DNA of 64,000 nt, from positions 186,001 through 250,000 of the forward strand of contig NZ_JALPSC010000002.1 in NCBI RefSeq assembly GCF_023217965.1, written 5' to 3'. The position numbers and the translations under genes were made by a program. Below the pieces are notes generated by a model, which was not told where the DNA came from, searched no databases, and was given only the letters and a program-made list of their open reading frames with translations. Position 1 is the first letter of the stretch, and each line of letters starts with the position of its first letter. The DNA comes from Prevotella sp. E13-27 (GTDB lineage: Bacteria > Bacteroidota > Bacteroidia > Bacteroidales > Bacteroidaceae). Positions 5,206 through 18,527 of the stretch are shown piece after piece.

Positions 5206-8200
5206 ATGTCAGATACTAGAAACTTTATTGTCGGGCTCGTGTCGCAGATAAACACGGCCACGGAACCGGAGAGCGTCACTAACCAGATGGTGGCCAGGGT
5301 GATGCAGTATTTCCTTGATGAACTGGCAAAGCAGATTCAGGGATCGCAGATCGCGAACTCTTCTATCAACACGAATCATCTTGTCCCAAGCTCAGTAGAT
5401 GAGACGATAATCGCTGACGGAAGTATCCTTACAGGGAAAATCGGAGATAGGCAGGTAACAGCCTCCAAGATTGCCGTGGATGCTGTTTCTGGTGATCATA
5501 TACAGGACGGTGCTGTCGATACTGTTCACATAGCTGATAATGCTATAGTTGCAGAAAAAATCCTTAATGGTGCAGTAGCGTGGGATAAGCTGGATCAGGC
5601 AGTGAAGACCAGGATAACGAACATCGAGAGGAATATCACTTCTCTTCTGGGAGATGGAGCTTCTGAGGCGATAGAGAACTTCAATGAGATACTGGAATTT
5701 CTGTCAGGAGTTACGGATGAACAGCACCTGGCCGAACTCCTGGATAGTTTGGGACAGAGGATAACGGCTTTGGAAAATGGTACTCCTTCACTGGATAACG
5801 ATGGAAAGATATTACCGGAATATCTGCCTGATGATGTCTATGATGTGGTGATGTGTGACCAGTGGGATGAGAATGTTTCACTGGGTAATACTTCACCTAA
5901 TACGGCAGAAGAAACCTCGTATGGATACAATCCGCATACGGATAGACTGTATAAGACACAAAGAGAGTGGGTGAATGCACCGAGAGGAGGGTACTGGATT
6001 TCTGTCTATTCAGAAGAGGTTGACCTAAGCCATGGGAAAATTTATATCGATAGGACAAAGAATATTCCGTACAGATGGGATTTAAGAATGATACCGCTGG
6101 CACCTGAAAACGTACCGGCCTCTATCTTCAATGCCACGGTGGAAGTTCCTGTGAACGGATACTATACACTCGTGGATCCGAACAACGTGGTATTGAGCGC
6201 AGTACATGCGGTGTGGAATGCTGGGAAGGCGGTGTCTGGCCTGATCCTTTCCTTCGAGATTTCAGCAGGTATCTGGAAGACATACCAGTATATCGGCAGG
6301 ACGGTGACGGAACAGAACTGGCTCAACGCTGATAACTGGAAGGACTTCGGTAGCCTGGCTGCAGGATCGGAGCCGTATATCATCATAGACAGTCTGATAG
6401 GCCGCCCGTCTGTGGGTGAGTACTATACGCTGGAGACAGCCGTGCAGGAACTGCTGAGATACCAGCAGTCAAGCGGCGTGACATACGCGAAGGTGGGACT
6501 GATAATCTCTTATTCGACAGGGGAGAATACCATGGAATCGAAACAGTTCCAGGGTACGACGGTGAACGACTTCGGAGAGACCGGACTGTGGAAGGACTTC
6601 GGAGGCGGTGGCTCTTCTCAGGTAGAGACAAAGGATGAGCCGGAAGAGAACGGTACCGACGCACTGAGTACGGGAGGCGCTTACGAATGTATCCCTACCG
6701 GCATACACCTGGATACAGAGACGGCTGGCGTGGTGAAGATGCAGCTGGTGAACGCCAAGGGTGAGGGCGTAGGCGATGAACAGCAGTTCCCTGTAGGAAC
6801 GGGAACAGGGGGCAGCGCTACGATCTTGGCTATAGTGTGCGAGAAATCACCTCTGTATGTGGCAGCTGGAGGAACAGTGGAGCTTAAGGCGGCCATCAAG
6901 TCAACTACATCACAGGGAGGAACGGAGACACTGAACGATATCGAGACGGTGGAGATATGGGACCGAGACACGAACCAGGTACTGGAGACACTGGCCATGA
7001 ACAGGGCTTCATCTGCTGACCTGGAGACCTTCGACTTCATCTTCAATATTACTTCGTACTTCACAACGGCAGGAACGAAACGCCTGAAACTGGTGGCTTA
7101 TGACAATGCCGGAAACTCAGGACAGAGAACGGTCAACGTGATTGCAGTGGATGTGACGGTGACATCGGCACAGACAACGCTGAACTACACAGCGGCAACG
7201 GCACTGAGCGTCGGAGGGGCACAGAAATCTCTGCCTATGTATAAGTTCGCGAACAATGCCAGCGACAAGGGTATCTTCGTGACCACGGAGATATTCATAG
7301 GCAACGCCTGGAGAACACTGGGAACGGCAACGGTGATGGATACCTATAGCCACAGCATCACCATCAATCCAGCCGATTGTCTGGGATATACCCTGACACA
7401 TGGGGCATACCCGATCCGCATACACGGTGAGGACGTGGGCAGCCGTAGGAACGATATCGCCGGTACCGGTGTGCAGGGTAACTACCTTCATACGGCTGTC
7501 ATGGTAATCGATGAGGGGGAAACGACACCGATAATCATTTCACGCTGGTATAGCGAACAGGAAACGGCCAGGGTGAAACTGTATGAGACGATATCCGTTG
7601 ATTTTGCTGTCTATGATCCTGCTTCAACAGCACCGACGGCAGCTATCCTGGTAAACGACGTGCAGCAGACAACAAGAACGGCATACCGTTCACAGACATA
7701 TACATACCTTCACAGGGTGCAGGATGTGGAGACGGACGGCAGCGTGACACTCAATGTCATGGTGGCATCGGGAACGGCTTCAAGCCAGGCAGCACCGTTC
7801 ATAGTATCTGGAACGATGCTGAATATCGAAGAGGTAAGGACACAGCTGCAGTTCGACATGGATTTCTCTACCAGGTCGAACAGCGAGGCTGACCACACAA
7901 TCAGCAATAACGGTGTGACACTGGAACTGCAGGGCGTGAACTGGGATACCACTGGATTCGTCAGGGATTCATTCGGTACGGACCAGTTCGGAACGGAACA
8001 GGATACTGGCGTGACGGCACTGAGAATAGCAGAGGATGTGACAGGTGTACTGAACTACAAGCCGTTTGATGATGATGCCATAGAACAGAACGGCCTGGCT
8101 ATACAGTTCGCATTCAGGAAGAAGAATATCGCGGATGATTCGGCTCGTATGCTGTCATGTATAGCCAACGGATTCGGATTCTACGTCGATGGAAAGAATG

Positions 8201-11200
8201 TGGTGTTTACAAGCGACAACGGCGAGACGGTGGCTAAGACGATCACGGCTGCAGTACAGAACGATGAGCCGGTACATGTGGCTATCGTCATAGAACCGGT
8301 GGCAGTGGCTCCCTATGGTGGCATCGGCGTGGTGAAGATGTTCTTTGATGGTGAAGAGATTGGAGCATGTGAATATTCGGCTGGATCACTGACCAGACAC
8401 GACACGCCCGTTTCGTTCAATGGCACAGAAGGAGATTTCTACCTCTATAGCATAAAGGCATGGAAGACGTACTATTCGTTTGAACAGGCCTTCGATAACT
8501 ACCTGCTGAAAATGTACGACACGGATAAGATGGTGACGGAATATCAGTTCAATGATGTGATGGCCTCAGTGACAGCTGAGAACACGACAAAGAACAGACC
8601 GCAAGCTATGGCACTCTATAATATGGGAATGCCTTACTTCGTGGTGTGTAAGCATCCTGAGACGGCTGACAACGACGCGAAGGATAACTATCCGGAATAC
8701 CTGGAGACACTGGATGGCGATAAGAAGACGAAGAGACTGCTCGTGTGGTATGCCTACTTCCCTGATCGCCCATGGCAGGACTGTAAGCTGGTGATGCAGA
8801 CAACGAACCAGGGAACGACATCGGCAAAGCGACCGATCAAGAATATCAAGGGTAAGATACAGAGCGTGGAGCTGCTGCATCAGGCAAGTGAGTTCACAGG
8901 CGCAGACCTGGAGAAATACAACGCTTGTCTGGCAAATGCCAATGCAGGACGAATACAGATAAAGGCGGATTCACTGCCTACGAAGATCGTAACGGTGAAG
9001 GTGGACTATTCGGAATCCGGAGGATCGAATAACGGTGGATCGACGCAGCTGTTCAACGACCTGCAGAGAGCACTGGGTGACCGGTATGTGACACCGGCAC
9101 AGAAAGTATACAACAGGGCAGGCCATCCCTATGTCCTGAACACGTCTATAGCATCAATGCCTATAGCTTTCTTCCGGACAGACCGTTTCAGTCCGGATGC
9201 CACAAGTCCGTCATACGGATATTTTCACGCGAAAGGCAACTGGAACGAGGATAAGGGTGATGCCAAGGTGTTCGGATTCGAAGACGTAGAAGGGTATAAC
9301 AGGGGATGCCTGAACTATGGGGATTTCGTAGAACTGGTGGCAGACCGCAACGAGACACTGGACGCATTCGCGCAGCGCGTGGATAAGTCACAGTGGGTGG
9401 CAGATAACATTTATGTGCTGTCTGAGTTCTGCGGACCGCTGCATAAGGTGTACAGATACCGGAATAACGCATGGACTGATACAACAGGAAACATGACATT
9501 CACTAATGGGCACTGGGTGATTACAGGTGATGTGGTGAATCCGGTAGAGAACTATGAACTGCGAAAGTATGACGGATTCTGCTGGTTCCAGGGTGTTGAC
9601 AGCCCCGACGATCTGCTGACACTAGACAGCGAGGGCAAACCGATATGGCTGCAGTATTATGAAAGCCGCTATCCGGACAATGACGATTTGAATGACCTGT
9701 ATGAGAGTGGACGGAAACTGCCTTACCAGCTGTACAGATGGCTGAGATTCTGCCAGGAGTGTAACCAGAACCTGAACGAGGATGACGGACGTATCACCAT
9801 CAATGGCGCATCGGTGAACGGTACGGTGGCACGAAGACTGGAGAAATGGCAGAAGGAACTGCATCTGTATGCTAACGTGTATTCAATACTGTGCTACCAT
9901 GTGTTTACGGACTATATCGCTGCTGTGGACCAGCGAGCCAAGAACATGATGGTGGGATTCTACCTGGATGAGGATGGCGTGGTGAGAATGTACCTGAACC
10001 ACCTCTATGACGGTGATACGATCCTGGGCAGTGATAATGACTGTGGACTGACCATACCGGCACTGCTGGATCCGAACAATGATCCTGGAGGTGTGTACCA
10101 GGGACACGACAGCGTTCTTTTTACACAGAATGCAGCCTTGCAGAATAACGGTATCTGGCTCGATAACCAGGGAACGGAAACAGTGACGGTAAGACAGGTG
10201 GCACAGGCCATGAGAGACGTGACGCTGGCTGATGGACTGCACCCGTTCAGCTATGCGGGACTGGTGAAGTATTTCGTGACTGACCGACTGCAGAAATGGC
10301 CGAAACTGGTGAGTTCGTTCGACGGTGAGCGTAAGTATATCGAGCACTCGAAGGCTACGGCGAACTACTTCTATGCACTCCACGGACTGAGCATCCAGAG
10401 ACTGAAAGACTTCATACATACGCGATTCTTGTACCGTGACGGATTCTATCAGACGGGTGATATGTTCGCGTCAAAGGTGTCACTGAGAGCAACTGGCACG
10501 AATATCACCATCGGGATAAAGGCTGCAAAGACTGGCTATTTCGGTATCGGAGTGGACCGTCTGAACGTGGCTACAGACAGCTGCTATCTGGAAGCCGGTG
10601 AGAGCTATACGCTGAGAACAGGCGTGACGAACACTGGCTCTGGAACGGCACTCTATGTGTTCGGAGCGGAGAACCTGGCAGAACTGGACCTGTCAGACTG
10701 CACACCGTCACCCTTCTCATGGGATATATCGGAACTGGTATTAATCAAGAAACTGATACTGGGCGGTCCGGACTACTCCAAGGCGAACAATAACGAGGGC
10801 TATCTTACTACGCTGAACCTGGGTAACCTGCCGTTCCTGGAGGAACTGGAGATAAGGAAGACGGAGGTGACAACAGTGAACGCCCGCTACTGTCCGAGAC
10901 TAAAGACAGTAAGGGCTGCAGGATCGAAGCTGCAGCGTATCGACGTGGCACCGGCCTCGAAGATAGAATATCTGCAGATACCGACGACATACAAGACGCT
11001 GATACTTCGACACCTGCCTGTGCTTACCATCAACGGTATAGTGTTTGAGAACGCTGCGGCAACGCCCATCGAGAGGGTGGTGGTGGAAAGCTGTGCTAAT
11101 ATCGACGGTCTGGAACTGCTGAGTACTATAGTGACAAACAACAGTAACGGACTGAGATATGTGAGGGTGACACCGATCAATGCCAGGGGTAGAGGTGAGA

Positions 11201-13083
11201 TCCTGGAGACACTGAGTAACATCACTGGGCTGCAGGGTGTGGACGCTACATTGGCAGACGGTGGCGCACCGGCGCTTGTCGGTACTTACCGGCTGACAAA
11301 ATATACAGAGGATGAGTATCTGGATAAGTGGAGAAACACCTTCCCTGAGCTGACCATCAAGCAGCAGGCATATACGGCTTTCAAGGAGAATGACCTGGAG
11401 ACGGATTCTGAGAATATTACCAACCTGGATAACCAGACGGGATATGACTATGGATCGACATTCGTACCGTCAGGACATATCCTTAAGATCAGGCAGAAAT
11501 GCCTGCCTGTTGCAGGTACGTATGACCAGAACCAGGGTGGTATGCACATGGATCTGCTGAGTAAGCACGACTACACGAAGTACTACGATGGCAGTGCCTT
11601 TGATAATACGGATCAGCTGGGACGTGGCACGGATTCATTCATCAGGGTACCAAAACACTGGTATAAGGGCATCAACGACTTCAAGAACCAGGAGAAATAT
11701 ACGCTGGTATCCTATAATAGCGAAATGCCTGAAAACACCTGGACGCGGAGAAATGTCGCTACACTGGCAGAAGCTATGTTCCGCGAGAGTGTGGGCCTGG
11801 CTATGGGCAGTGTGGTGGAAGGTGAGGCCTTCAATATCGACACGGCAACAAACATGCTGTCTTCATGCTCTGTGTACCGTCTCGATGTGGAGGGAATGAA
11901 GCAGGTACGGTACGTGGGTATGAATAATGCCACATACGGTGCAGTGTTCGTGGACGCAGACGGTGATGTAATCAGTAAGGTGGCACTGTCTATCGCTGGT
12001 ACTACAGACAGCCCACTGGACTTCTCGAATGAACAGGGTGACTATATTTTCAGAGACGTACCGACAGGGGCTAAATACCTGTACTTCACTGCATTGAAGG
12101 TGGTGCCTCAGACTACGGAGGTGTTCGCAGTGGATAGTGAAGACATCGAGGCCATCGAACCAGGATGGGAACTGTTCCCTGCAGGACTGCTGGCTGTCTA
12201 TGCGGCAACAATCGACGATCTGGGACTGCTGAGGTCTATAGCTGGCAGAACAACGAAGAGAGGTAACGGAACGGCTGTTACATCTTCTGAATGGGTATAT
12301 GATGCAGAAGGCACACCAACAGCCATGCCCGTAAGCACGATGAACTACACATACCAGGATTTCCTGAACCTCTGTGCATTCCGAGGAGAGGGGTACATGG
12401 GAACACCTTACGAGGCAAGTAAGCAGATCGCCTTGATATCCAGGTTTATCTGTGGAAACAGGGATGATCAGCGTGTATATGGATTCGGACAGCAGTCGGA
12501 ATACAGGACGGGTGTACGTGACAGCATCGGTGCAGGCAGTACAGTGTACGGAGTACATTCAGGAGTGACAAAGGTGCTGGGACTGGAAGGATTCGTAGGC
12601 TGTATCTGGGAGGTGATGGACTGCGTAGGCGTGAACATATCTGACTTCCGGACATGGAGAAAGAACCACAGGCCGGATTCTGGTACGGCTAACGGGAAAT
12701 GGCACATAGTCGATCCTGTTACGAAGACTGAGCGCGTGGTGCAGGGCCTCACTTCTGGCAGTGGTAATAATATCGCACGCCTGAAACATGGCCGACACTG
12801 TGATTACATACCGGCTGCAGTATCTTCGGATACGTCACAGTATAGCAAGAGTTACGGAGCTGGATGGTGGATCAATAATACAGGCGGGCGCTGCGTGGGC
12901 CGGTCGAATAACAGCGCGAACGCGAGCGGCGGTCTCGTGTGTGCGAGCGCGTACTACGCTGCGTCGTACTCGAGCGCGAGCAACGCGGTGCGCCTCGCCT
13001 TCTTTGGAAGGCTGCTGAACGAGAGCGAGATCGATGCGCTCGACGATCTGACGAACGAACAGCTCCCGGACACGGGAGTATAA
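5206..13083 (+). CDS. Giant phage receptor-binding/tail-fibre-type protein, DGR target, 2625 aa
   Basis: This is the largest gene in the window and the target of the diversity-generating retroelement. Residues 1-130 contain short imperfect repeats of the type A-D-x-A-I-V-A-E-K-I-L-N-G-A-V, as in fibre attachment regions. Around residues 880-1090 there is a beta-rich segment resembling a LamG/concanavalin-like domain. Residues about 1825-2005 contain leucine-rich-like strands (ELDLSDC, TTLNLGNLPFLEELEI). From about residue 2085 to the end the sequence resembles the C-type lectin/formylglycine-generating-enzyme fold, with GLEGFVGCIWEVMD near 2460 and GWWINNTGGRCVGRSNN near 2553. The variable repeat encodes residues 2561-2598, followed by 27 invariant residues. 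This placement is the hallmark of DGR variable proteins such as Mtd, where the lectin fold displays diversified ligand-binding residues. A role in host-surface binding is inferred. Confidence 0.85.
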   Translation: MSDTRNFIVGLVSQINTATEPESVTNQMVARVMQYFLDELAKQIQGSQIANSSINTNHLVPSSVDETIIADGSILTGKIGDRQVTASKIAVDAVSGDHIQDGAVDTVHIADNAIVAEKILNGAVAWDKLDQAVKTRITNIERNITSLLGDGASEAIENFNEILEFLSGVTDEQHLAELLDSLGQRITALENGTPSLDNDGKILPEYLPDDVYDVVMCDQWDENVSLGNTSPNTAEETSYGYNPHTDRLYKTQREWVNAPRGGYWISVYSEEVDLSHGKIYIDRTKNIPYRWDLRMIPLAPENVPASIFNATVEVPVNGYYTLVDPNNVVLSAVHAVWNAGKAVSGLILSFEISAGIWKTYQYIGRTVTEQNWLNADNWKDFGSLAAGSEPYIIIDSLIGRPSVGEYYTLETAVQELLRYQQSSGVTYAKVGLIISYSTGENTMESKQFQGTTVNDFGETGLWKDFGGGGSSQVETKDEPEENGTDALSTGGAYECIPTGIHLDTETAGVVKMQLVNAKGEGVGDEQQFPVGTGTGGSATILAIVCEKSPLYVAAGGTVELKAAIKSTTSQGGTETLNDIETVEIWDRDTNQVLETLAMNRASSADLETFDFIFNITSYFTTAGTKRLKLVAYDNAGNSGQRTVNVIAVDVTVTSAQTTLNYTAATALSVGGAQKSLPMYKFANNASDKGIFVTTEIFIGNAWRTLGTATVMDTYSHSITINPADCLGYTLTHGAYPIRIHGEDVGSRRNDIAGTGVQGNYLHTAVMVIDEGETTPIIISRWYSEQETARVKLYETISVDFAVYDPASTAPTAAILVNDVQQTTRTAYRSQTYTYLHRVQDVETDGSVTLNVMVASGTASSQAAPFIVSGTMLNIEEVRTQLQFDMDFSTRSNSEADHTISNNGVTLELQGVNWDTTGFVRDSFGTDQFGTEQDTGVTALRIAEDVTGVLNYKPFDDDAIEQNGLAIQFAFRKKNIADDSARMLSCIANGFGFYVDGKNVVFTSDNGETVAKTITAAVQNDEPVHVAIVIEPVAVAPYGGIGVVKMFFDGEEIGACEYSAGSLTRHDTPVSFNGTEGDFYLYSIKAWKTYYSFEQAFDNYLLKMYDTDKMVTEYQFNDVMASVTAENTTKNRPQAMALYNMGMPYFVVCKHPETADNDAKDNYPEYLETLDGDKKTKRLLVWYAYFPDRPWQDCKLVMQTTNQGTTSAKRPIKNIKGKIQSVELLHQASEFTGADLEKYNACLANANAGRIQIKADSLPTKIVTVKVDYSESGGSNNGGSTQLFNDLQRALGDRYVTPAQKVYNRAGHPYVLNTSIASMPIAFFRTDRFSPDATSPSYGYFHAKGNWNEDKGDAKVFGFEDVEGYNRGCLNYGDFVELVADRNETLDAFAQRVDKSQWVADNIYVLSEFCGPLHKVYRYRNNAWTDTTGNMTFTNGHWVITGDVVNPVENYELRKYDGFCWFQGVDSPDDLLTLDSEGKPIWLQYYESRYPDNDDLNDLYESGRKLPYQLYRWLRFCQECNQNLNEDDGRITINGASVNGTVARRLEKWQKELHLYANVYSILCYHVFTDYIAAVDQRAKNMMVGFYLDEDGVVRMYLNHLYDGDTILGSDNDCGLTIPALLDPNNDPGGVYQGHDSVLFTQNAALQNNGIWLDNQGTETVTVRQVAQAMRDVTLADGLHPFSYAGLVKYFVTDRLQKWPKLVSSFDGERKYIEHSKATANYFYALHGLSIQRLKDFIHTRFLYRDGFYQTGDMFASKVSLRATGTNITIGIKAAKTGYFGIGVDRLNVATDSCYLEAGESYTLRTGVTNTGSGTALYVFGAENLAELDLSDCTPSPFSWDISELVLIKKLILGGPDYSKANNNEGYLTTLNLGNLPFLEELEIRKTEVTTVNARYCPRLKTVRAAGSKLQRIDVAPASKIEYLQIPTTYKTLILRHLPVLTINGIVFENAAATPIERVVVESCANIDGLELLSTIVTNNSNGLRYVRVTPINARGRGEILETLSNITGLQGVDATLADGGAPALVGTYRLTKYTEDEYLDKWRNTFPELTIKQQAYTAFKENDLETDSENITNLDNQTGYDYGSTFVPSGHILKIRQKCLPVAGTYDQNQGGMHMDLLSKHDYTKYYDGSAFDNTDQLGRGTDSFIRVPKHWYKGINDFKNQEKYTLVSYNSEMPENTWTRRNVATLAEAMFRESVGLAMGSVVEGEAFNIDTATNMLSSCSVYRLDVEGMKQVRYVGMNNATYGAVFVDADGDVISKVALSIAGTTDSPLDFSNEQGDYIFRDVPTGAKYLYFTALKVVPQTTEVFAVDSEDIEAIEPGWELFPAGLLAVYAATIDDLGLLRSIAGRTTKRGNGTAVTSSEWVYDAEGTPTAMPVSTMNYTYQDFLNLCAFRGEGYMGTPYEASKQIALISRFICGNRDDQRVYGFGQQSEYRTGVRDSIGAGSTVYGVHSGVTKVLGLEGFVGCIWEVMDCVGVNISDFRTWRKNHRPDSGTANGKWHIVDPVTKTERVVQGLTSGSGNNIARLKHGRHCDYIPAAVSSDTSQYSKSYGAGWWINNTGGRCVGRSNNSANASGGLVCASAYYAASYSSASNAVRLAFFGRLLNESEIDALDDLTNEQLPDTGV
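12885..12999 (+). repeat. DGR variable repeat (VR)
   Basis: This 115-bp segment inside the 3' end of the giant gene matches the template repeat at 13143-13257 (constant offset 258) at 104 of 115 positions. The 11 differences are at VR positions 12914, 12926, 12941, 12947, 12952, 12955, 12961, 12967, 12974, 12976 and 12980. At all except 12961 the TR has A; the VR has G at seven and T at three of these. Codons affected encode residues 2570, 2574, 2579, 2581, 2583, 2584, 2586, 2588, 2590, 2591 and 2592. The last 19 bp, ending GCGGTGCGCCTCGCC, are identical and GC-rich, as expected for the initiation-of-mutagenic-homing end. Two further A-to-non-A pairs lie just outside each edge (AA/GG at 12883-12884, AA/TT at 13000-13001). 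Confidence 0.95.
13063..13078 (+). other. GC-rich hairpin with GACA loop downstream of VR
   Basis: CTCCCG (13063-13068) and CGGGAG (13073-13078) form a perfect 6-bp stem around the loop GACA. It ends two bases before the stop codon of the DGR target gene, 63 bp after the VR. In the Bordetella phage DGR a short GC-rich hairpin or cruciform with a 4-base loop close behind the VR is needed for efficient target recognition, so this element is a candidate equivalent. It is farther from the VR than in that phage. Confidence 0.55.
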
Positions 13084-13092
13084 CGAGAACGA

Positions 13093-13120
13093 GGGCGGCG
13101 GCCTGATGAGGGCCGTCCCC
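13093..13120 (+). other. Strong hairpin between DGR target gene and TR
   Basis: CGGCC (13099-13103) pairs with GGCCG (13111-13115) around a 7-base loop. The stem can be extended outward by G-U and G-C pairs and a GGG/CCC clamp with one bulged C. There is no following T run, so it is not a typical intrinsic terminator. It is probably a structured element of the DGR RNA or a transcription boundary. Confidence 0.5.
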
Positions 13121-13128
13121 TTCCAAAG

Positions 13129-13288
13129 GTAGACGATCTCAACGGGCGCTGCGTGGGCCGGTCGAATAACAACGCGAACGCGAACGGCGGTCTCGTGTAT
13201 GCGAACGCGAACAACGCTTCGTCGAACTCGAACACGAACAACGCGGTGCGCCTCGCCAACTAGAACCCCTTCAAAGAATCGTCTCTAC
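13129..13288 (+). repeat. Inverted repeat enclosing the TR
   Basis: GTAGACGAT at 13129-13137 can pair with ATCGTCTCTAC at 13278-13288 (nine pairs with a two-base bulge). The two arms bracket the template repeat, so in the TR transcript they would close the TR into one large loop. Pairing is seen in the sequence. A role in presenting the TR to the reverse transcriptase is inferred. Confidence 0.5.
13143..13257 (+). repeat. DGR template repeat (TR)
   Basis: This is the non-coding donor copy for the VR. Read in the VR frame it is packed with AAC codons, the codon that lets adenine mutagenesis reach many amino acids without stop codons. Its translation in that frame is Asn-rich (for example GRCVGRSNNNANANGG). 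It contains 26 adenines, 10 of which differ in the current VR. No start codon or ORF of its own is evident, and the frame meets TAG at 13261-13263. It lies 59 bp after the target gene's stop codon and 197 bp before the reverse transcriptase start. The TR/VR cassette is much richer in GC (CGC, GCG, TCG codons) than the surrounding phage genes. Confidence 0.95.
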
Positions 13289-13454
13289 GGCACTCTGTAC
13301 GTGTACGGAAAAGCAGTGGGCGAGAGATCGGAGCCTCGGCAACAGCAGCCGGTAACGGCTGGAAAGCGGAAAAATCACAGGGTGGGGACTATAACTGGCA
13401 AGTAGACGGAATAACGGCTGAAAGTCACAACGTCCCCGGAATCAAAGAAGAAAG
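13262..13454 (+). ncRNA. DGR spacer RNA region between TR and reverse transcriptase
   Basis: This stretch of about 190 bp has no plausible gene and contains several complementary segments. CAGCCG (13346-13351) and CGGCTG (13356-13361) form a hairpin with a GTAA (GNRA-type) loop. A second CGGCTG at 13415-13420 offers an alternative partner. GGGGAC (13384-13389) can pair with GTCCCC (13432-13437) just before the RT start. In the Bordetella phage DGR the equivalent spacer is part of the RNA bound by the RT and is needed for cDNA priming. Equivalence here is inferred from position and foldability. Confidence 0.6.
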
Positions 13455-14924
13455 ATGGGAAGCAACAGACTTCATCATGTTATCCCTGAGATTATCGAGC
13501 GTGATAATATGAAGCAGTCTTTCAGGGAAGTGACAGAAGACCTGGAGGATGAAATCAGGGAAAGATACGAGCGAAAGAAGGAAAGCATAGTCAGGAGCCT
13601 GCAGAAGAAAATCGGTAACGGGACATTCAGAGTGACCAGGTATCACGAGTTCTGGACTAAGGACGGACCGAAGATGAGAAAGATACAGGCACCGCCAGTC
13701 ATACAGAGGATAGGGTGTAATGCTATCATGCGAGTGGTGGAAAGACACCTGTATCCAACGGTGATAAGAACTTCGGCTGCAAGCATCAAGGGAAGAGGGA
13801 TGCACAGGCTCTACAGAAAGGTAAGAACGGACATAAGGCATGACAGGGAAGGAACGGCCTTCTTCTATATGTGCGATATCAGGAAGTTCTACGAGAGCAT
13901 AGACCAGGACAGGATGTTTGAATATATCTGTACCAGGATAAAGGACCCGCTACTGCTGCCAATGCTGGAGAACTTTATAAGGCTGATGGCAAAGGGACTG
14001 TCTATAGGACTGAGATCATCACAGTTCTTTGGGAATATTCTTCTTTCAAGACTGGACCACAGGCTTAAGGAGGTCGAAAGGGTACGGTATTATTACAGGT
14101 ACTGCGACGATTTCAGAGTGCTGGCAGGGAACAAAAGGTATCTGTGGAGAATACGGGACATCATACACGAAGAGGTGGAAAGCCTGGGACTGGCGATAAA
14201 GACAAACGAGGCAGTGAAACCTATCGGTGAAGGAAATGACTTCCTGGGATTCGTGGATGATGGGGAACACTCCAGGATACGGAAGAGAACGAAACAGAAC
14301 GCCGCAAGGAAACTGCACAAGGTGAAAAGCAGGAAAAGGAGGCAGAAGATTATTGGATCCTTTAAAGGTATGGCCAAGTGGGGAGACTGCGGACATTTAT
14401 ACAAGACTTTAACAGGAAAGAATATGGAAGATCTGGGGGAGGTCAATATCAGAATGGCCTACAAGGATGGAAAGAAACACTTCAAGGGAAAGGATGTGGG
14501 ACCGCGTGAACTTGAACGACGGCCCTTCGTGGTCGTTGACTTTGAGAGGGACGTGACTCCAAGACGCGAACGGGTGGAATATGAGAGGAACATCGAGGAG
14601 GCAAAAGCTCAGGGAAAAGATCCTGGTATGGTAAGGGAACCGGTGAAGAAATGGGTAATAAGCCTGCTGTTCGATGGAAAGCCACGGAAGATGTGGACTG
14701 GAATACAGGAAAACAAGATTATCCTGGAACAGATGGAGAAAGCTGGAAAAATTCCGTTCTTTGCTTCTATAGTGGCTGACTACGAGAGCGGAAAGTATCC
14801 GTTCTATACGCTGACATCGGCAACGGCACTGGGATTCAGTAAGCCGGACGATAAGGAGGTGGAAAGACTGATTAAACAATTTAATATGAGCACTAGTGTC
14901 CGGTTAAATTTTTCCGAACGTTAA
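13455..14924 (+). CDS. DGR reverse transcriptase, 3' end altered by an IS insertion
   Basis: The protein makes adenine-mutagenised cDNA from the TR RNA. The start MGSNRLHHVIPEIIERDN fits the usual beginning of DGR RTs. The first catalytic Asp is D141 (FYMCDIRKFYESID). A DGR-type SQ motif lies at S189-Q190 (GLRSSQFFGNILLS) in place of the QGxxxSP of retron and group II intron RTs. The catalytic YCDD is at residues 216-219, and a thumb-like SFKGMAKWGDCGHLYKTL segment ends near residue 325. Another 150 residues follow, with no recognised domain. The natural end was MR-stop (ATG, AGG, TAA) at residue 479, still visible across the IS. The insertion splits the AGG codon, so the present protein ends in 11 IS-encoded residues (STSVRLNFSER) for 489 in all. 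Activity is probably retained but untested. Confidence 0.92.
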   Translation: MGSNRLHHVIPEIIERDNMKQSFREVTEDLEDEIRERYERKKESIVRSLQKKIGNGTFRVTRYHEFWTKDGPKMRKIQAPPVIQRIGCNAIMRVVERHLYPTVIRTSAASIKGRGMHRLYRKVRTDIRHDREGTAFFYMCDIRKFYESIDQDRMFEYICTRIKDPLLLPMLENFIRLMAKGLSIGLRSSQFFGNILLSRLDHRLKEVERVRYYYRYCDDFRVLAGNKRYLWRIRDIIHEEVESLGLAIKTNEAVKPIGEGNDFLGFVDDGEHSRIRKRTKQNAARKLHKVKSRKRRQKIIGSFKGMAKWGDCGHLYKTLTGKNMEDLGEVNIRMAYKDGKKHFKGKDVGPRELERRPFVVVDFERDVTPRRERVEYERNIEEAKAQGKDPGMVREPVKKWVISLLFDGKPRKMWTGIQENKIILEQMEKAGKIPFFASIVADYESGKYPFYTLTSATALGFSKPDDKEVERLIKQFNMSTSVRLNFSER

Positions 14925-14982
14925 TTAAATGTTTAAATTTCAATGAGATACAGCGATTTAAAAATTTTCCGATTTGATTTTT

Positions 14983-14990
14983 TATCTTTG
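14983..14990 (+). promoter_or_regulatory. Candidate -7 box for the IS transposase
   Basis: TATCTTTG matches the Bacteroidetes -7 consensus TAnnTTTG and lies about 30 bp before the preferred transposase start at 15021. No clear TTTG box is seen at the usual spacing upstream. Confidence 0.45.
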
Positions 14991-15020
14991 TACTGTCTCA
15001 TATATAAGATAGCACAGGAT

Positions 15021-16181
15021 ATGAATGCCGGAAATACTGTATTCTCGCAACTGATGTCTCTCATCCCTGACTACGAGCTCAGGAAATGTATTGACAGATA
15101 TAGAGGGGATTTTCATGCAAGACGATTCACTTGCCGTGACCAGTTCCTTGTCATGAGTTATGCTCAGCTGACCAGCAGCGCAAGCCTTCGTAGCATAGAG
15201 GCTCAGTTGACTGCTTTCAACTCCAAGTTGTATCATGCCGGTCTGAAGGTGATGCCCAAGTCCACTCTCGCCGACATGAACGAGAAGAAGGACTGGCGTA
15301 TCTATCAGGACTACGCAATGGTACTTGTCGAGAGGGCTAAAGTCCTGTATAAAGATGAATACTATCGGTTGGGAATTGACAATATGGTGTATGCCTTTGA
15401 CAGCAGTACCATCAACCTGTGTCTGCATCTCTGTCCATGGGCGAAGTTCCATCATGACAAAGGTGCTTTCAAGATGCACACTTTGATTGATGTAAAGAAC
15501 AACATACCCAACTTCATCATGCTTACTCCTGGCAATGTGCATGATACTCAGGCTATGGACAGCTTGCCTGTAGAAGCAGGGGCTTACTATCTGATGGATA
15601 AAGGCTATGTGGACTTTGACCGTCTGTTCCGTCTCTTCCAACAGCAGAAGGCTTACTTTGTAACCAGAGCAAAGGACAACATGAAATATTCCGTATTCGA
15701 GGCAAGAGAGGTTGACAGGCAGACTGGCGTCATCTCTGACGAGTCCATCAGTCTTACTGGTCTCTTTACAGCCAAGAAGTACCCTGATTTGTTGCGTCTG
15801 GTCGTCTATGAGGACTTTGCGCAGAACGTAGTGTATCGATTCCTGACGAATGACTTCACCCTTGAAGCAATTACCATTGCGGAACTGTACCGAGAGCGCT
15901 GGACTATCGAAACGTTCTTCAAATGGATCAAGCAGCACCTGCACATCAAGACGTTCTATGGGACGTCCCAAAACGCAGTCTTCACACAGATATGGATTGC
16001 CATCTGTGACTACCTGCTGCTTATTATTGCTCTGAAGATGTATCATATCGAACAAAATCTTTACATATTCTCTAATGTCATCGGCCAAGTTCTCTTTGAG
16101 AGGACTCCGCTGAATGAACTTTTTGACAAACCAATTATTAATCAAAATCCGGAAGATGACCGCCAACTTTCGCTTTGGTGA
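15021..16181 (+). CDS. IS4-family transposase (DUF4372 plus DDE domain), 386 aa
   Basis: This enzyme cuts and joins the IS ends. The N-terminal segment MNAGNTVFSQLMSLIPDYEL matches the DUF4372 domain typical of Bacteroidetes IS4 transposases, so the ATG at 15021 is preferred over an in-frame ATG at 14943, which lies upstream of the candidate promoter. The DDE triad is visible: Asp in YAFDSSTI, Asp in YLMDKGYVDFD, and Glu in YRERWTIETFFKWIK, where the IS4 signature Y-2-R-3-E-6-K is exact. The reading frame is intact, and its stop codon overlaps the first base of the right inverted repeat. The reverse strand shows a long shadow frame over the same DNA. Confidence 0.93.
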   Translation: MNAGNTVFSQLMSLIPDYELRKCIDRYRGDFHARRFTCRDQFLVMSYAQLTSSASLRSIEAQLTAFNSKLYHAGLKVMPKSTLADMNEKKDWRIYQDYAMVLVERAKVLYKDEYYRLGIDNMVYAFDSSTINLCLHLCPWAKFHHDKGAFKMHTLIDVKNNIPNFIMLTPGNVHDTQAMDSLPVEAGAYYLMDKGYVDFDRLFRLFQQQKAYFVTRAKDNMKYSVFEAREVDRQTGVISDESISLTGLFTAKKYPDLLRLVVYEDFAQNVVYRFLTNDFTLEAITIAELYRERWTIETFFKWIKQHLHIKTFYGTSQNAVFTQIWIAICDYLLLIIALKMYHIEQNLYIFSNVIGQVLFERTPLNELFDKPIINQNPEDDRQLSLW

Positions 16182-16216
16182 AATTTAACCGGACAGTAGT
16201 GTAATATGAGGTAACT

Positions 16217-16708
16217 ATGGAAAAAATCTATGGCGCTAAAGGCGAACAGAACGGCCTCTATCGTATAGGCCGCTTCAAATGGGAGGTTATCTACGGCTTC
16301 GGCAAGGATAACGAGAATGATGAGACTGGCTATAACTATCGCCTGCAGTATTCATACAGGCCACGCCTGGAGAATATCAAGAAGGATATCATCGAGACAG
16401 TGAACGAGATCGTCAGGGACAGGATCCTGCAGGGAATGAGGTTCAGGGGACACCTGGTGTGGCTCAATGCTGAGAACCAGCGGAACTATGCAGATTGGTA
16501 TGGCCTGGCGGTAATTAGCGACAGTAACCTGCCTGTCACGGTGAAGCTGGGACAGGATGAGGAACCGGTAGAGGTGACTTTCAACACTCTGGAAGAGATT
16601 ACCGAGTTCTACGAGGCTGTAGCTAACCATATCCGTGAAACTGTGACCACTGGCTGGCAAATGAAGAAAAATATCAACTGGGAGGAATACGAGCATGAGA
16701 AAGATTAA
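16217..16708 (+). CDS. Phage protein of unknown function, 163 aa
   Basis: This soluble protein has no signal peptide or membrane segment. Charged, possibly helical stretches lie near residues 50-72 and 125-145. Before the IS insertion its ATG lay only three bases after the RT stop (TAACTATG), so it was tightly linked to the RT gene. It overlaps the endolysin start by 14 bp. It does not look like an Avd protein, which is a small basic helical bundle usually encoded upstream of the TR. Position suggests either a DGR-associated or a lysis-associated role; I cannot choose between them. Confidence 0.6.
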   Translation: MEKIYGAKGEQNGLYRIGRFKWEVIYGFGKDNENDETGYNYRLQYSYRPRLENIKKDIIETVNEIVRDRILQGMRFRGHLVWLNAENQRNYADWYGLAVISDSNLPVTVKLGQDEEPVEVTFNTLEEITEFYEAVANHIRETVTTGWQMKKNINWEEYEHEKD

Positions 16709-17144
16709 GAGAATATTCGTTCACTGTACGGCTAGCTGGCAGAAAACGACTACGGAGGCCTCACTGAGGGCTGAGTTCAAAAAAAACGGATGGAAGAATC
16801 CTGGATACCATTATGTGATAATGCCTGATGGCAGCGTGATCAACATGCTCGATGAAAGCCTGGTGGCTAATGGAGTGAAAGGCTATAATGCTACCAGTGT
16901 TCATGTGGCATGGGTAGGAGGTATCGACAAGCAGCACCCTAACGGTATCGACAATAGGACACAGGAACAGAAACAGACGCTGATAGGGATACTGACGGTG
17001 CTGAGGAAAAGGTATCCGGATGCTCAGATCATGGGACATCGTGATATTTCGCCGGACAAGAACGGGAACGGTATCGTGGATCCATGGGAAAGGATCAAGG
17101 AATGTCCGTGCTTTGACGCAATGATCGAGTATGCTGATCTATAG
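16695..17144 (+). CDS. Phage endolysin, N-acetylmuramoyl-L-alanine amidase (Amidase_2 type)
   Basis: The 149-residue protein hydrolyses the amide bond between muramic acid and the stem peptide of peptidoglycan. Zinc-ligand motifs of the Amidase_2/PGRP fold are visible: the N-terminal FVHCTASW, the central PGYHYVIMPDGS, and the C-terminal MGHRDISPDKNGNG followed by a Cys-containing CPCFD. No signal peptide is present, so export would need a holin or other phage factor, which is not seen in the window. It is the last + strand gene of the prophage and overlaps the end of the convergent integrase gene by six bases. Confidence 0.88.
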   Translation: MRKIKRIFVHCTASWQKTTTEASLRAEFKKNGWKNPGYHYVIMPDGSVINMLDESLVANGVKGYNATSVHVAWVGGIDKQHPNGIDNRTQEQKQTLIGILTVLRKRYPDAQIMGHRDISPDKNGNGIVDPWERIKECPCFDAMIEYADL

Positions 17145-18284
17145 GAAACTGTCAAAGGCATGAACGCCTTCTGAACGTACTTCATCGACTACATGGGCGT
17201 AGATAAGCGTCATGCGTAACGAGGAATGACCGAGAATATTCTGCAATGTCAGGATATCTCGGTTTTTCTGGTAAAAAAGGGTGGCAAAGGTATGGCGGCC
17301 AGCCTTGCAGCTTATAGGCTTGTCAATCTTGGCATCGGTACAGATGGATCTGATCTTCCTGTTTATGGTCTGGCTCTTCGCAAAACGCTCTATCAGGAGA
17401 CCTTTTGACCGGCCTCCTTTATAATACTCTACAAGTTTCAATGCAGGAGCGGAAAGGGGTACACAGACATTCAGACGTGTCTTCCCGCGCGTATAGTGGA
17501 TCTCGTTGTTACGGATGTCGTCAATCTTCAAGCGTAGGGCATCACCTATATGAAGGGAGGTGAAACACATGAAAAGGAAAAACCTGAGACATTGGAGATC
17601 CAGTCCGGAATATTGATTCGAGTTGTACAGGTCGATAAGGCGTTTAAGCTCTGGTTCTGTCAGGTAAATGATCTTGCTCTTCGGGTGGCGGATCTTGATG
17701 GACTTGAAAGGATTGTCCTGGATATAACCGGCACGATCGGCAGCGTTCACATACGTCTTAAGACATGAGATATTCTTCCATACGGTTGCTTCCTGATTAC
17801 CGATCTTACGGAGCCAGGAGGCAAAGCCATGTATCATTTGTGGCGTGATCTCATGGAAGGCAAGACCGGCACGGTAGGAACGGAGCTTCGCTAGGACGGC
17901 AGAATGCTGACGGCAGGTATTCAGGGCTAGTGTACGGCTCTCGATCTTCTGTAGGGCTTCTATGAAGTCATAGAAATCTTTGTAGTCCCTGGGACTGTTG
18001 TACTGCCTGAAAAAACTTTCTTTCGTGAGTTTCTGATGCCTGAGCCTTGCAGTAACCAGAACATCACTTATACGTGCGCGCGTGTCTTCTATTATTAAAT
18101 TACGGTCTTTAACGTCCTGACTACGGCCACGGATCTTCTCTGACTGAGGATCCCACTCTGAGGAACTGACACTGAGTTTGATGGGGACACGGACCTTTTC
18201 ACGGCTGCAATAGAAAACAGCATATAAGGGTGACTTACCATTCTTACCTTCCTCTGGACGCTTGATGATTCGAATAACTGCCAT
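17139..18284 (-). CDS. Phage tyrosine integrase, 381 aa
   Basis: Site-specific recombinase of the Bacteroidetes phage/ICE type. An N-terminal SAM-like core-binding domain (about residues 100-185) is followed by the catalytic domain. Visible catalytic residues are K327 and R330 (CKAGRHTFAT), H353 (LGHSSLRMT) and the nucleophile Y362 (LIYAHV). The position usually held by the first catalytic Arg (G-L-R-I/F-S-D) reads SLHIGD, giving H245. Several Bacteroidetes element integrases, such as that of CTnDOT, also lack this Arg. The gene is convergent with the endolysin gene and is adjacent to tRNA-Phe, the likely attachment site. It lies at the right end of the prophage. Confidence 0.92.
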   Translation of the reverse strand: MAVIRIIKRPEEGKNGKSPLYAVFYCSREKVRVPIKLSVSSSEWDPQSEKIRGRSQDVKDRNLIIEDTRARISDVLVTARLRHQKLTKESFFRQYNSPRDYKDFYDFIEALQKIESRTLALNTCRQHSAVLAKLRSYRAGLAFHEITPQMIHGFASWLRKIGNQEATVWKNISCLKTYVNAADRAGYIQDNPFKSIKIRHPKSKIIYLTEPELKRLIDLYNSNQYSGLDLQCLRFFLFMCFTSLHIGDALRLKIDDIRNNEIHYTRGKTRLNVCVPLSAPALKLVEYYKGGRSKGLLIERFAKSQTINRKIRSICTDAKIDKPISCKAGRHTFATLFYQKNRDILTLQNILGHSSLRMTLIYAHVVDEVRSEGVHAFDSFL

Positions 18285-18404: not shown

Positions 18405-18437
18405 AATCCCGCTCGGTCCGAAGACTTTCGCGGGATT
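18405..18437 (-). terminator. Candidate intrinsic terminator for tRNA-Phe
   Basis: AATCCCGC (18405-18412) and GCGGGATT (18430-18437) form a perfect 8-bp stem with a 17-base loop. It lies 17 bp after the 3' end of tRNA-Phe on the - strand and is followed there by TTTTCCTGTTTT. The 170 bp between the integrase and the tRNA hold no gene. Confidence 0.55.
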
Positions 18438-18454
18438 CATAATGAAAGGAGGAG

Positions 18455-18500
18455 TGGTACCTCCAGGAATCGAACCGGGGACACACGGATTTTCAGTCCG
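18455..18500. other. Probable prophage attachment site (right end) in the 3' part of tRNA-Phe
   Basis: The integrase gene faces the 3' half of the tRNA-Phe gene with only 170 bp between them, the usual arrangement when a tyrosine integrase uses the tRNA 3' end as attB. The matching copy should lie at the left phage end outside the window, so the exact core cannot be drawn here. Confidence 0.35.
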
Positions 18501-18527
18501 ATGCTCTACCAACTGAGCTAAGGCACC
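18455..18527 (-). tRNA. tRNA-Phe (GAA anticodon)
   Basis: The 73-nt gene folds as a standard cloverleaf on the - strand. The acceptor stem is GGTGCCT/AGGTACC with one G-T pair, the anticodon loop is ACTGAAAAT with GAA, and the T-loop is GGTTCGATTCC. CCA is not encoded. A promoter with both boxes lies upstream. Confidence 0.96.

What the first reader, a model, noticed from the sequence alone, without database searches (positions are those of the whole stretch)
12885..14924. Complete diversity-generating retroelement in a prophage of a Prevotella-like host
VR (12885-12999) and TR (13143-13257) align without gaps over 115 bp with 11 differences, 10 at TR adenines (VR has G at 7, T at 3). The VR lies at the 3' end of a lectin-like fold; the TR is packed with AAC codons; a YCDD/SQ-type RT follows. 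These are all the core DGR parts. The host-receptor-type target is among the largest DGR proteins I know of at 2625 residues.
Basis: partly seen in the sequence, partly recalled or inferred. Interest (0 to 1): 0.9.

Follow-up and report, generated by a model that had tools for sequence, protein, structure and literature searches.

The report
Phage hypermutation cassette with fused helper
This is a genuine phage gene-scrambling cassette of a known gut-phage type, and its copying enzyme carries a built-in small domain that other such cassettes appear to encode as a separate, unnamed gene, which may explain how cassettes lacking the usual helper protein work.

Summary
It is a diversity-generating retroelement (DGR) in a ~47-kb prophage at a tRNA-Phe gene of a Prevotella-group genome. 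A viral relative has a near-identical TR, but its VR differs at 16 of 25 adenine sites and follows its own TR at all 4 sites where the TRs differ, so TR-to-VR copying went on after the lineages split. The 2,625-aa target is not exceptional (9th of 42 in its clade). Beyond the finding: no Avd was found. Instead the reverse transcriptase carries a ~100-aa C-terminal domain with OB-fold strand order. The same family (phrog_19665, function unknown) is a separate gene beside the RT in other DGRs, including archaeal virus ANMV-1. Fetched by that gene alone, 109 of 114 viral loci carry a DGR RT and/or TR/VR pair, none an Avd by my profile. The window's own copy is too diverged for stand-alone profiles; its link rests on position, an intermediate and the fold. 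Proposed: a nucleic-acid-binding accessory in Avd's place, fused here. Function is untested, and earlier surveys may already hold this gene under another label.

The parts
5206..13083 (+). DGR target gene, 2625 aa, tail-fibre-type protein
   Evidence: phrog_14959 over residues 363-2603 (2042 bits, unknown function); weaker N-terminal matches to tail-fibre PHROGs 892 and 28766
12885..12999 (+). variable repeat (VR), codons 2560-2598 of the target
13063..13078 (+). hairpin CTCCCG-GACA-CGGGAG downstream of VR, GRNA tetraloop as described for BPP-1-type DGRs
   Evidence: 7-bp stem in the scan, outer pair G-T; strict criterion met in only 8 of 58 VRs of the fused class, so not general in the clade; motif description from a PMC4372165 passage
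13143..13257 (+). template repeat (TR), 11 of 38 codons AAC in the VR frame
13277..13437 (+). RT-3 RNA (RF03068): structured spacer between TR and RT
   Evidence: 76.5 bits, gathering 40.5; same slot as RF03022 Phage_DGR in BPP-1
13455..14924 (+). reverse transcriptase, 489 aa as read; last 11 residues come from the IS
   Evidence: RVT_1; phrog_1423 4.9e-83; best PDB match of the model (residues 1-475) is BPP-1 DGR RT 8ub7
14007..14024 (+). RT motif GLRSSQ (residues 185-190)
14100..14111 (+). RT catalytic YCDD (residues 216-219)
14526..14819 (+). C-terminal OB-like accessory domain of the RT (residues 358-455)
   Evidence: models (domain model pLDDT 94.9); family relation via relatives
14882..14890 (+). 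target-site duplication TAATATGAG, left copy
14891..16201 (+). IS4-family insertion sequence, 1311 bp, transposase 14943-16181
   Evidence: 28-nt inverted ends, 86% complementary; NF033592 5.4e-73
16202..16210 (+). target-site duplication TAATATGAG, right copy
16217..16708 (+). DUF4376 / phrog_19239 gene that follows the RT gene
   Evidence: a related gene lies near the RT in 73 surveyed loci
16695..17144 (+). prophage amidase/endolysin
   Evidence: PF01510 2.3e-16; phrog_822 7.2e-42
17139..18284 (-). prophage tyrosine integrase
   Evidence: PF00589, phrog_1
18416..18471 (.). right att repeat (56 bp, perfect; left copy at G000:C2:157439, 28.6 kb before the window)
18454..18527 (-). tRNA-Phe (gaa), integration site

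Best explanation
A hankyphage-type DGR in a tRNA-Phe prophage. SHOWN by sequence: a TR/VR pair with adenine-restricted differences; one target, with VR at residues 2560-2598 of a 2625-aa tail-fibre-type protein; a structured spacer RNA (RT-3) between TR and RT; an RT whose model best matches the BPP-1 DGR RT; evidence of TR-to-VR copying since the split from its nearest relative. INFERRED from known DGRs: the TR transcript with its RT-3 spacer is bound by the RT, reverse-transcribed with random bases opposite adenines, and the cDNA replaces VR, varying the receptor-binding tip of the tail fibre. NEW PROPOSAL: Avd is absent and its role is taken by a C-terminal OB-like domain of the RT, a fused form of a small DGR accessory protein that in other DGRs is its own gene just after the RT or between target and RT. 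It most likely binds the template RNA or the single-stranded cDNA/target DNA during priming or retrohoming. Odds: DGR 0.97; copying went on in this lineage after the split 0.9; the clade's RT domain belongs to the accessory family 0.85, the window's own copy 0.8; nucleic-acid-binding role in retrohoming 0.55.
Against: The window's own domain is not hit by stand-alone-only profiles (4.4 bits; the best of 2000 shuffles reached 7.9) or by phrog_19665 at E 1; its strong hit (6.7e-25) is circular, since it was in that profile. The link runs through L007 (54% identical RT, E 1.1e-6), alignment position and the model. 19 of 92 fused RTs are missed by the stand-alone profile. Foldseek finds no significant fold match (best E 0.56) and VIA Z stays at 6.5 or less. 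37 of 162 loci have neither domain nor Avd, so an accessory may not be needed, or a third kind exists. Separate fusions are not forced: starred branches require only one origin. The hankyphage paper labels one gene as Avd (legend); Benler chose a small ORF by size and pI; the 64-aa ORF before the TR in BK010646 has no Pfam match, and whether it is the labelled gene was not established. 'Exclusive with Avd' rests on 6 Avd loci, together on one branch at support 32, and on narrow Avd profiles. No direct evidence that this copy is active now.
Confidence: 0.68

Rival explanations
1. Ordinary hankyphage-type DGR; the C-terminal extension is only an enlarged RT thumb without a separate accessory role.
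For: Zeta crAss authors ascribe variable RT C-termini to the thumb (PMC12386605, passages). The window's domain is not hit by stand-alone profiles.
Against: The region is a compact separate domain in the models and its family is a stand-alone gene in many DGRs in two positions.
Confidence: 0.2
2. The small gene is a phage SSB or tail-assembly gene that merely travels with DGRs.
For: Phage DGRs sit among tail genes, and OB proteins are common in phages (recalled). Two full-flank loci have the gene and no RT or TR/VR within 4 kb.
Against: 109 of 114 loci fetched by the gene alone have a DGR RT and/or TR/VR pair, on a fixed side (32 of 32; 73 of 74) and at short gaps (medians 284 and 98 bp); it fuses to the RT; the one hit in 395 genomes of the phylum is at a DGR.
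Confidence: 0.06
3. The cassette is a relic in this strain: the IS altered the RT's end and VR no longer turns over.
For: IS4 element at the RT's last codon; one VR change at a non-A site; only 10 of 26 A sites changed.
Against: The RT is open up to its last codon: the relative L002 ends one residue later, so one residue is replaced by 11. Only 1 of 89 non-A sites of VR has drifted from TR. The prophage has perfect att repeats and a full-length tape-measure frame.
Confidence: 0.2
4. The accessory family is already in print under another label: the DGR-linked protein of Wu et al. 2018 that has no Pfam or CDD entry, or the ORF labelled Avd in the ANMV-1 paper.
For: PMC10053308 (results section part 1 read) says one protein suggested in the 2018 survey lacks Pfam and CDD; the family here has no Pfam domain in any of 240 listed homologues. 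PMC4372165's figure legend labels an ANMV-1 ORF as Avd without saying in the passages which.
Against: I could not read the 2018 survey. Passages seen name Avd, HRDC and MSL or Avd_like only. Neither ANMV-1 ORF hits my Avd profile, and GenBank calls the gene hypothetical.
Confidence: 0.4

Closest known systems
Hankyphage (Bacteroides phage p00) DGR
   Same: Same RT class with the C-terminal domain (44.6% identity over residues 5-439; domain), order target-VR-TR-RT, RT-3 RNA, target above 2000 aa (PMC6199706 passage), DUF4376 gene after the RT.
   Different: Window phage carries a tyrosine integrase at a tRNA gene, hankyphage is described as transposable; RT C-terminal domain is longer and more diverged; IS at the RT end; only 60 bp between target stop and TR, where hankyphage has a 64-aa ORF.
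Bordetella phage BPP-1 DGR
   Same: RT fold (8ub7), adenine-specific TR/VR differences, structured spacer RNA between TR and RT (RF03022 there, RF03068 here), GRNA-loop hairpin after VR.
   Different: BPP-1 has bAvd (PF22296 7.3e-36), a 328-aa RT and a 381-aa target; here no Avd found, an RT with an extra domain, a 2625-aa target.
ANMV-1 archaeal virus DGR
   Same: Carries the accessory family as its own gene right after the RT (98 aa, annotated hypothetical).
   Different: Not fused; small target (AdtA, 446 aa by its coordinates). Its paper labels one ORF Avd; the passages seen do not say which.
phrog_19665 (unknown function)
   Same: Profile matches stand-alone genes and RT C-termini of this RT class.
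   Different: The window's own domain is below its detection.

Membership tests
DGR | TR/VR pair with substitutions confined to TR adenines | tested here: met
   10 of 11 at A, P 6.8e-7
DGR | RT of the DGR class (GxxxSQ, YxDD, DGR RT fold) | tested here: met
   GLRSSQ, YCDD; best PDB match BPP-1 RT
DGR | VR inside a coding target, changes mostly non-synonymous | tested here: met
   all 11 differences at codon positions 1 or 2 of the target frame, each changing the residue
DGR | C-type-lectin fold of the VR domain | tested here: inconclusive
   weak FGE-sulfatase hits in 2 of 24 relatives, none for the window; no PDB sequence match of use; not folded
DGR | structured RNA between TR and RT | tested here: met
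   RF03068 RT-3, 76.5 bits
DGR | Avd accessory protein | tested here: not met
   no bAvd in 9 ORFs scanned; own Avd HMM no hit in the window. Not defining for all DGRs: about a quarter lack it (PMC7290462 passage)
DGR | observed VR turnover in living cells | not testable with these tools
   no reads of this strain; indirect support from L002
Hankyphage-type DGR RT clade | RT falls in the clade with a fused C-terminal domain | tested here: met
   43-row clade that holds the window and hankyphage, SH-aLRT 100
Accessory family phrog_19665 / OB-like | direct profile match of the window's own domain | tested here: not met
   reached only through L007 (E 1.1e-6), RT alignment position and model
OB fold | five strands and a helix in the order b1-b2-b3-a-b4-b5, with OB proteins as closest folds | tested here: inconclusive
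Intact prophage | integrase, att repeats, structural genes | tested here: met
   56-bp perfect repeats, integrase, 1416-codon open frame whose end matches tape-measure PHROGs, head protease; not every gene was checked

The most novel reading that the evidence does not exclude
DGRs have a second main kind of accessory besides Avd: a ~100-aa OB-fold RNA/ssDNA-binding protein, present in phages, bacteria and archaeal viruses, placed before or after the RT and fused to it in the hankyphage clade and perhaps again elsewhere. It takes Avd's slot, goes with its own spacer RNA classes (RT-3 when fused; RT-17 seen in 2 loci with the separate gene), and delivers or protects the mutagenised cDNA, as gp32 or annealing proteins do for ssDNA.
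Probability: 0.45. Interest if true: 0.75.

Novelty: new variant of a known kind. Interest (0 to 1): 0.57.

Why it matters
Avd is essential in the one DGR dissected in detail (PMC12875486 passage), yet about a quarter (PMC7290462 passage) to 38% of DGRs are said to lack it (62% of RTs in complete genomes co-occur with Avd_like; PMC8934634 passage). How these work is open. A conserved alternative accessory, visible here because it is fused to the RT, makes the question testable in hankyphage, where DGR activity has been measured in culture, and gives a marker for annotating hundreds of 'hypothetical' genes.

Tried and rejected
Size as the headline: rejected after measuring 42 complete targets of the RT class. 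Avd by PF05635: uninformative, no control rang; replaced by PF22296 with BPP-1 as control (the window's genome was not in that search) and by an own HMM from four annotated Avd proteins. A second VR in this genome: none found. GRNA hairpin as a clade-wide mark: rejected, 8 of 58 fused-class VRs against 1 of 58 upstream controls. CrAssphage LMMB's 431-aa RT: its tail resembles the domain by eye, but E 1-4; left as a lead. Fold by Foldseek alone: no significant match. PDB sequence search with the domain: one unrelated row at E 1.2. phrog_19665 over 395 genomes of the phylum: 1 hit, so that profile is narrow (it misses the window's own copy). 'Every copy of the gene is DGR-linked': not claimed; two full-flank loci (L252, L255) have no RT or TR/VR within 4 kb, three others (L193, L221, L274) end close to the gene. 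GxxxSQ-like motif in RTs next to the before-RT type: my pattern found it in only 19 of 32. Prior art on the domain: searches listed no paper whose title or abstract describes it; the library lacks most subscription and non-commercial-licence papers, Wu 2018 among them.
Full report
OBSERVATION. VR 12885-12999 and TR 13143-13257 align without gaps over 115 bp with 11 differences, 10 at the 26 TR adenines (7 to G, 3 to T), one T>G; P = 6.8e-7. All changes fall at codon positions 1 or 2 of the 2625-codon ORF 5206-13083 and change the residue; VR is codons 2560-2598. No other copy was found in the genome by DNA search or by an adenine-tolerant scan of the window plus 40 kb upstream.

SETTING. The window is G000:C2:186001-250000. 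A perfect 56-bp repeat at C2:157439 and at window 18416-18471, overlapping tRNA-Phe 18454-18527, with an integrase next to it, bounds a prophage of about 47 kb. It has a head protease and a 1416-codon open frame that runs into the window and whose end matches tape-measure PHROGs. The host shares its GTDB genus with G195, whose hit lies at the coordinates of the Prevotella lacticifex record.

THE RT IS ALTERED ONLY AT ITS TIP. An IS4-family element (14891-16201, 28-nt inverted ends, 9-bp duplication) sits at the RT's last codon. The nearest relative's RT ends one residue after the insertion point; here that residue is replaced by 11 IS-encoded ones. I mend nothing; the RT core and its C-terminal domain are uninterrupted. 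The IS now separates the DGR from the following DUF4376 and amidase genes.

EVIDENCE THAT COPYING WENT ON. L002 (IMG/VR; RT 82% identical) is the only viral contig that holds this TR core, adenines left free. Of 114 aligned positions the TRs differ at 4, the VRs at 21: 16 of the 25 sites that are A in both TRs and 5 of 89 others (Fisher P 2.0e-9). At all 4 sites where the TRs differ, each VR carries its own TR's base; the fifth non-A difference is the window's T>G. That is what TR-to-VR copying after the split predicts. In related DGRs the same holds between near-identical strains: of 21 pairs compared (five, five and two loci, so not independent), 20 differ in VR, by 6-19 adenine sites and 0-2 others; one pair is identical. 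L019/L024 have identical TRs and 1500 bp upstream but 16 VR differences, all at A. Across 95 distinct gap-free TR/VR pairs of the survey A>G:A>T:A>C is 759:512:243 with 75 non-A changes (pairs were selected for at least 75% A mismatches, so the total bias is partly by construction).

THE TARGET IS NOT A RECORD. It matches phrog_14959 over 2241 residues. Among 42 complete targets over 1000 aa in loci with a fused RT (strains not dereplicated) it ranks 9th (median 2283, maximum 2836); in the other classes, 47 VR ORFs of any length, the median is 419. Large targets go with this RT clade. The lectin fold is likely from hankyphage (PMC6199706 passage) but was not confirmed here.

RT ORFs of this class are ~90 aa longer than DGR RTs with the separate gene (medians 437 against 351 and 349). 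The extension is a separate, confidently modelled domain with strand order b-b-b-helix-b-b and an extra helix after the first strand. In a locus set gathered by the RT, small ORFs beside shorter RTs proved to be related to it. phrog_19665, a PHROG of unknown function, matches both forms. A profile of 23 stand-alone genes only finds 73 of the 92 RTs called fused, always within 45 residues of the C-terminus, and L132 besides. tblastn of one stand-alone protein against 50,697 phage records returned 21 records, all at the C-terminal end of hankyphage-type RTs; that of another returned two, ANMV-1 and vir525, in both the gene directly after the RT.

COUNTS. RT-gathered set: 162 loci. L001 and L117 (copies of the window), L147-L149 (neighbouring stretches) and L150 (a second piece of L002's contig) were dropped before the count. 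Fused 92; gene after the RT 23, of which L021, L040, L094 and L156 look like split RT frames; gene before the RT 4; Avd without the domain 6; neither 37; one hit per locus, none farther than 1.5 kb from the RT, among 9239 ORFs. The set is redundant; at 85% RT-core identity, 101 rows (four loci too short left out): fused 48 plus 1 split, after 16, before 4, neither 26, Avd 6. Accessory-gathered set: 36 loci from one protein query and 78 new of 80 kept of 194 confirmed from an alignment query. DGR RT in 32 of 36 and 74 of 78; RT and/or TR/VR in 35 of 36 and 74 of 78; Avd by my profile in 0 of 114; where an RT was found the gene lay before it in 32 of 32 of the first type and after it in 73 of 74 of the second. 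Seven of the 78 are contigs already in the RT set (by contig name); without them 67 of 71. Protein databases hold at least 474 and 199 clusters of the two types at E 0.001; none of the 240 listed has a Pfam domain.

EVOLUTION. On the RT-core tree (quick method, SH-aLRT only) the window lies in a 43-row fused clade (support 100); L056 and L133/L135 are fused outside it. The fused label needs 3 changes (shuffled mean 33.8), but well-supported branches force only one origin; the 6 Avd rows sit together at support 32. Several long branches make deep placement unsure. RNA goes with it: RT-3 in the window and in 7 of 8 fused sources (not L128), in 0 of 12 others; RT-17 in two loci with the gene after the RT; Phage_DGR in BPP-1 (20 of the loci held were scanned).

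MECHANISM. By analogy with BPP-1, where Avd is essential and the spacer RNA recruits RT-Avd (PMC12875486 passages), I propose that the domain does the recruiting or strand-handling here in cis. Hankyphage, same RT type, is active in culture (PMC12135933 passages), so this architecture works; whether its ORF called Avd matters is not known to me, and the 64-aa ORF before its TR has no Pfam match.

KNOWN OR NEW. The cassette is a new member of the hankyphage-type DGRs. I found no description of the accessory in the searches or in the passages read. Two doors stay open: PMC10053308 notes one DGR-linked protein from Wu 2018 without Pfam or CDD entry, and the ANMV-1 paper labels an ORF Avd; either may be this family. 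On that second point I raised the odds of 'already in print' from 0.35 to 0.4 and lowered interest by 0.01 after checking.

Noticed in passing
window 14891-16201: IS4-family element between the DGR RT and the DUF4376/amidase genes; may be polar on the lysis gene and affect induction.
   Followed up: partly
L003:15669-15782, L013:16196-16313, L114:16371-16488; L008, L011, L083 near 14.7-15.0 kb: Relatives of the window's DGR have a second VR about 5-6 kb from the TR in small ORFs (280 aa on the same strand; 196-247 aa on the opposite strand). None was found for the window.
   Followed up: partly
L158:2860-4155 (crAssphage LMMB RT): RT tail after the thumb looks like a short version of the OB-like domain by eye but scores E 1-4; LMMB is described as lacking avd.
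   Followed up: partly
L139, L140, L143, L144 RT tails: Prevotella-group DGR RTs of 548-549 aa whose long tails score E 0.002-0.013 with the domain profile; possible further fusions.
   Followed up: partly
L132 RT tail: Counted as 'neither', yet hit by the stand-alone profile (5.9e-8); probably a further fused RT.
   Followed up: partly
L252, L255: Two 8.3-kb viral loci with the stand-alone gene and full flanks but no RT or TR/VR detected.
   Followed up: no
Rfam RF03068 (RT-3) and RF03020 (RT-17): In these loci both RNAs lie just before or at the start of the DGR RT, RT-3 in the slot of BPP-1's spacer RNA, so they look like DGR spacer RNAs of two accessory classes.
   Followed up: partly
L152:4475-4669 (hankyphage BK010646): Small 64-aa ORF between VR and TR has no bAvd or other Pfam match, although hankyphage is described with an Avd-like ORF.
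   Followed up: partly
Bacuni phage DGR (PMC8143477 passage): An 'Avd' ORF lies between target and TR, the slot of the before-RT accessory type; it was not checked which family it belongs to.
   Followed up: no
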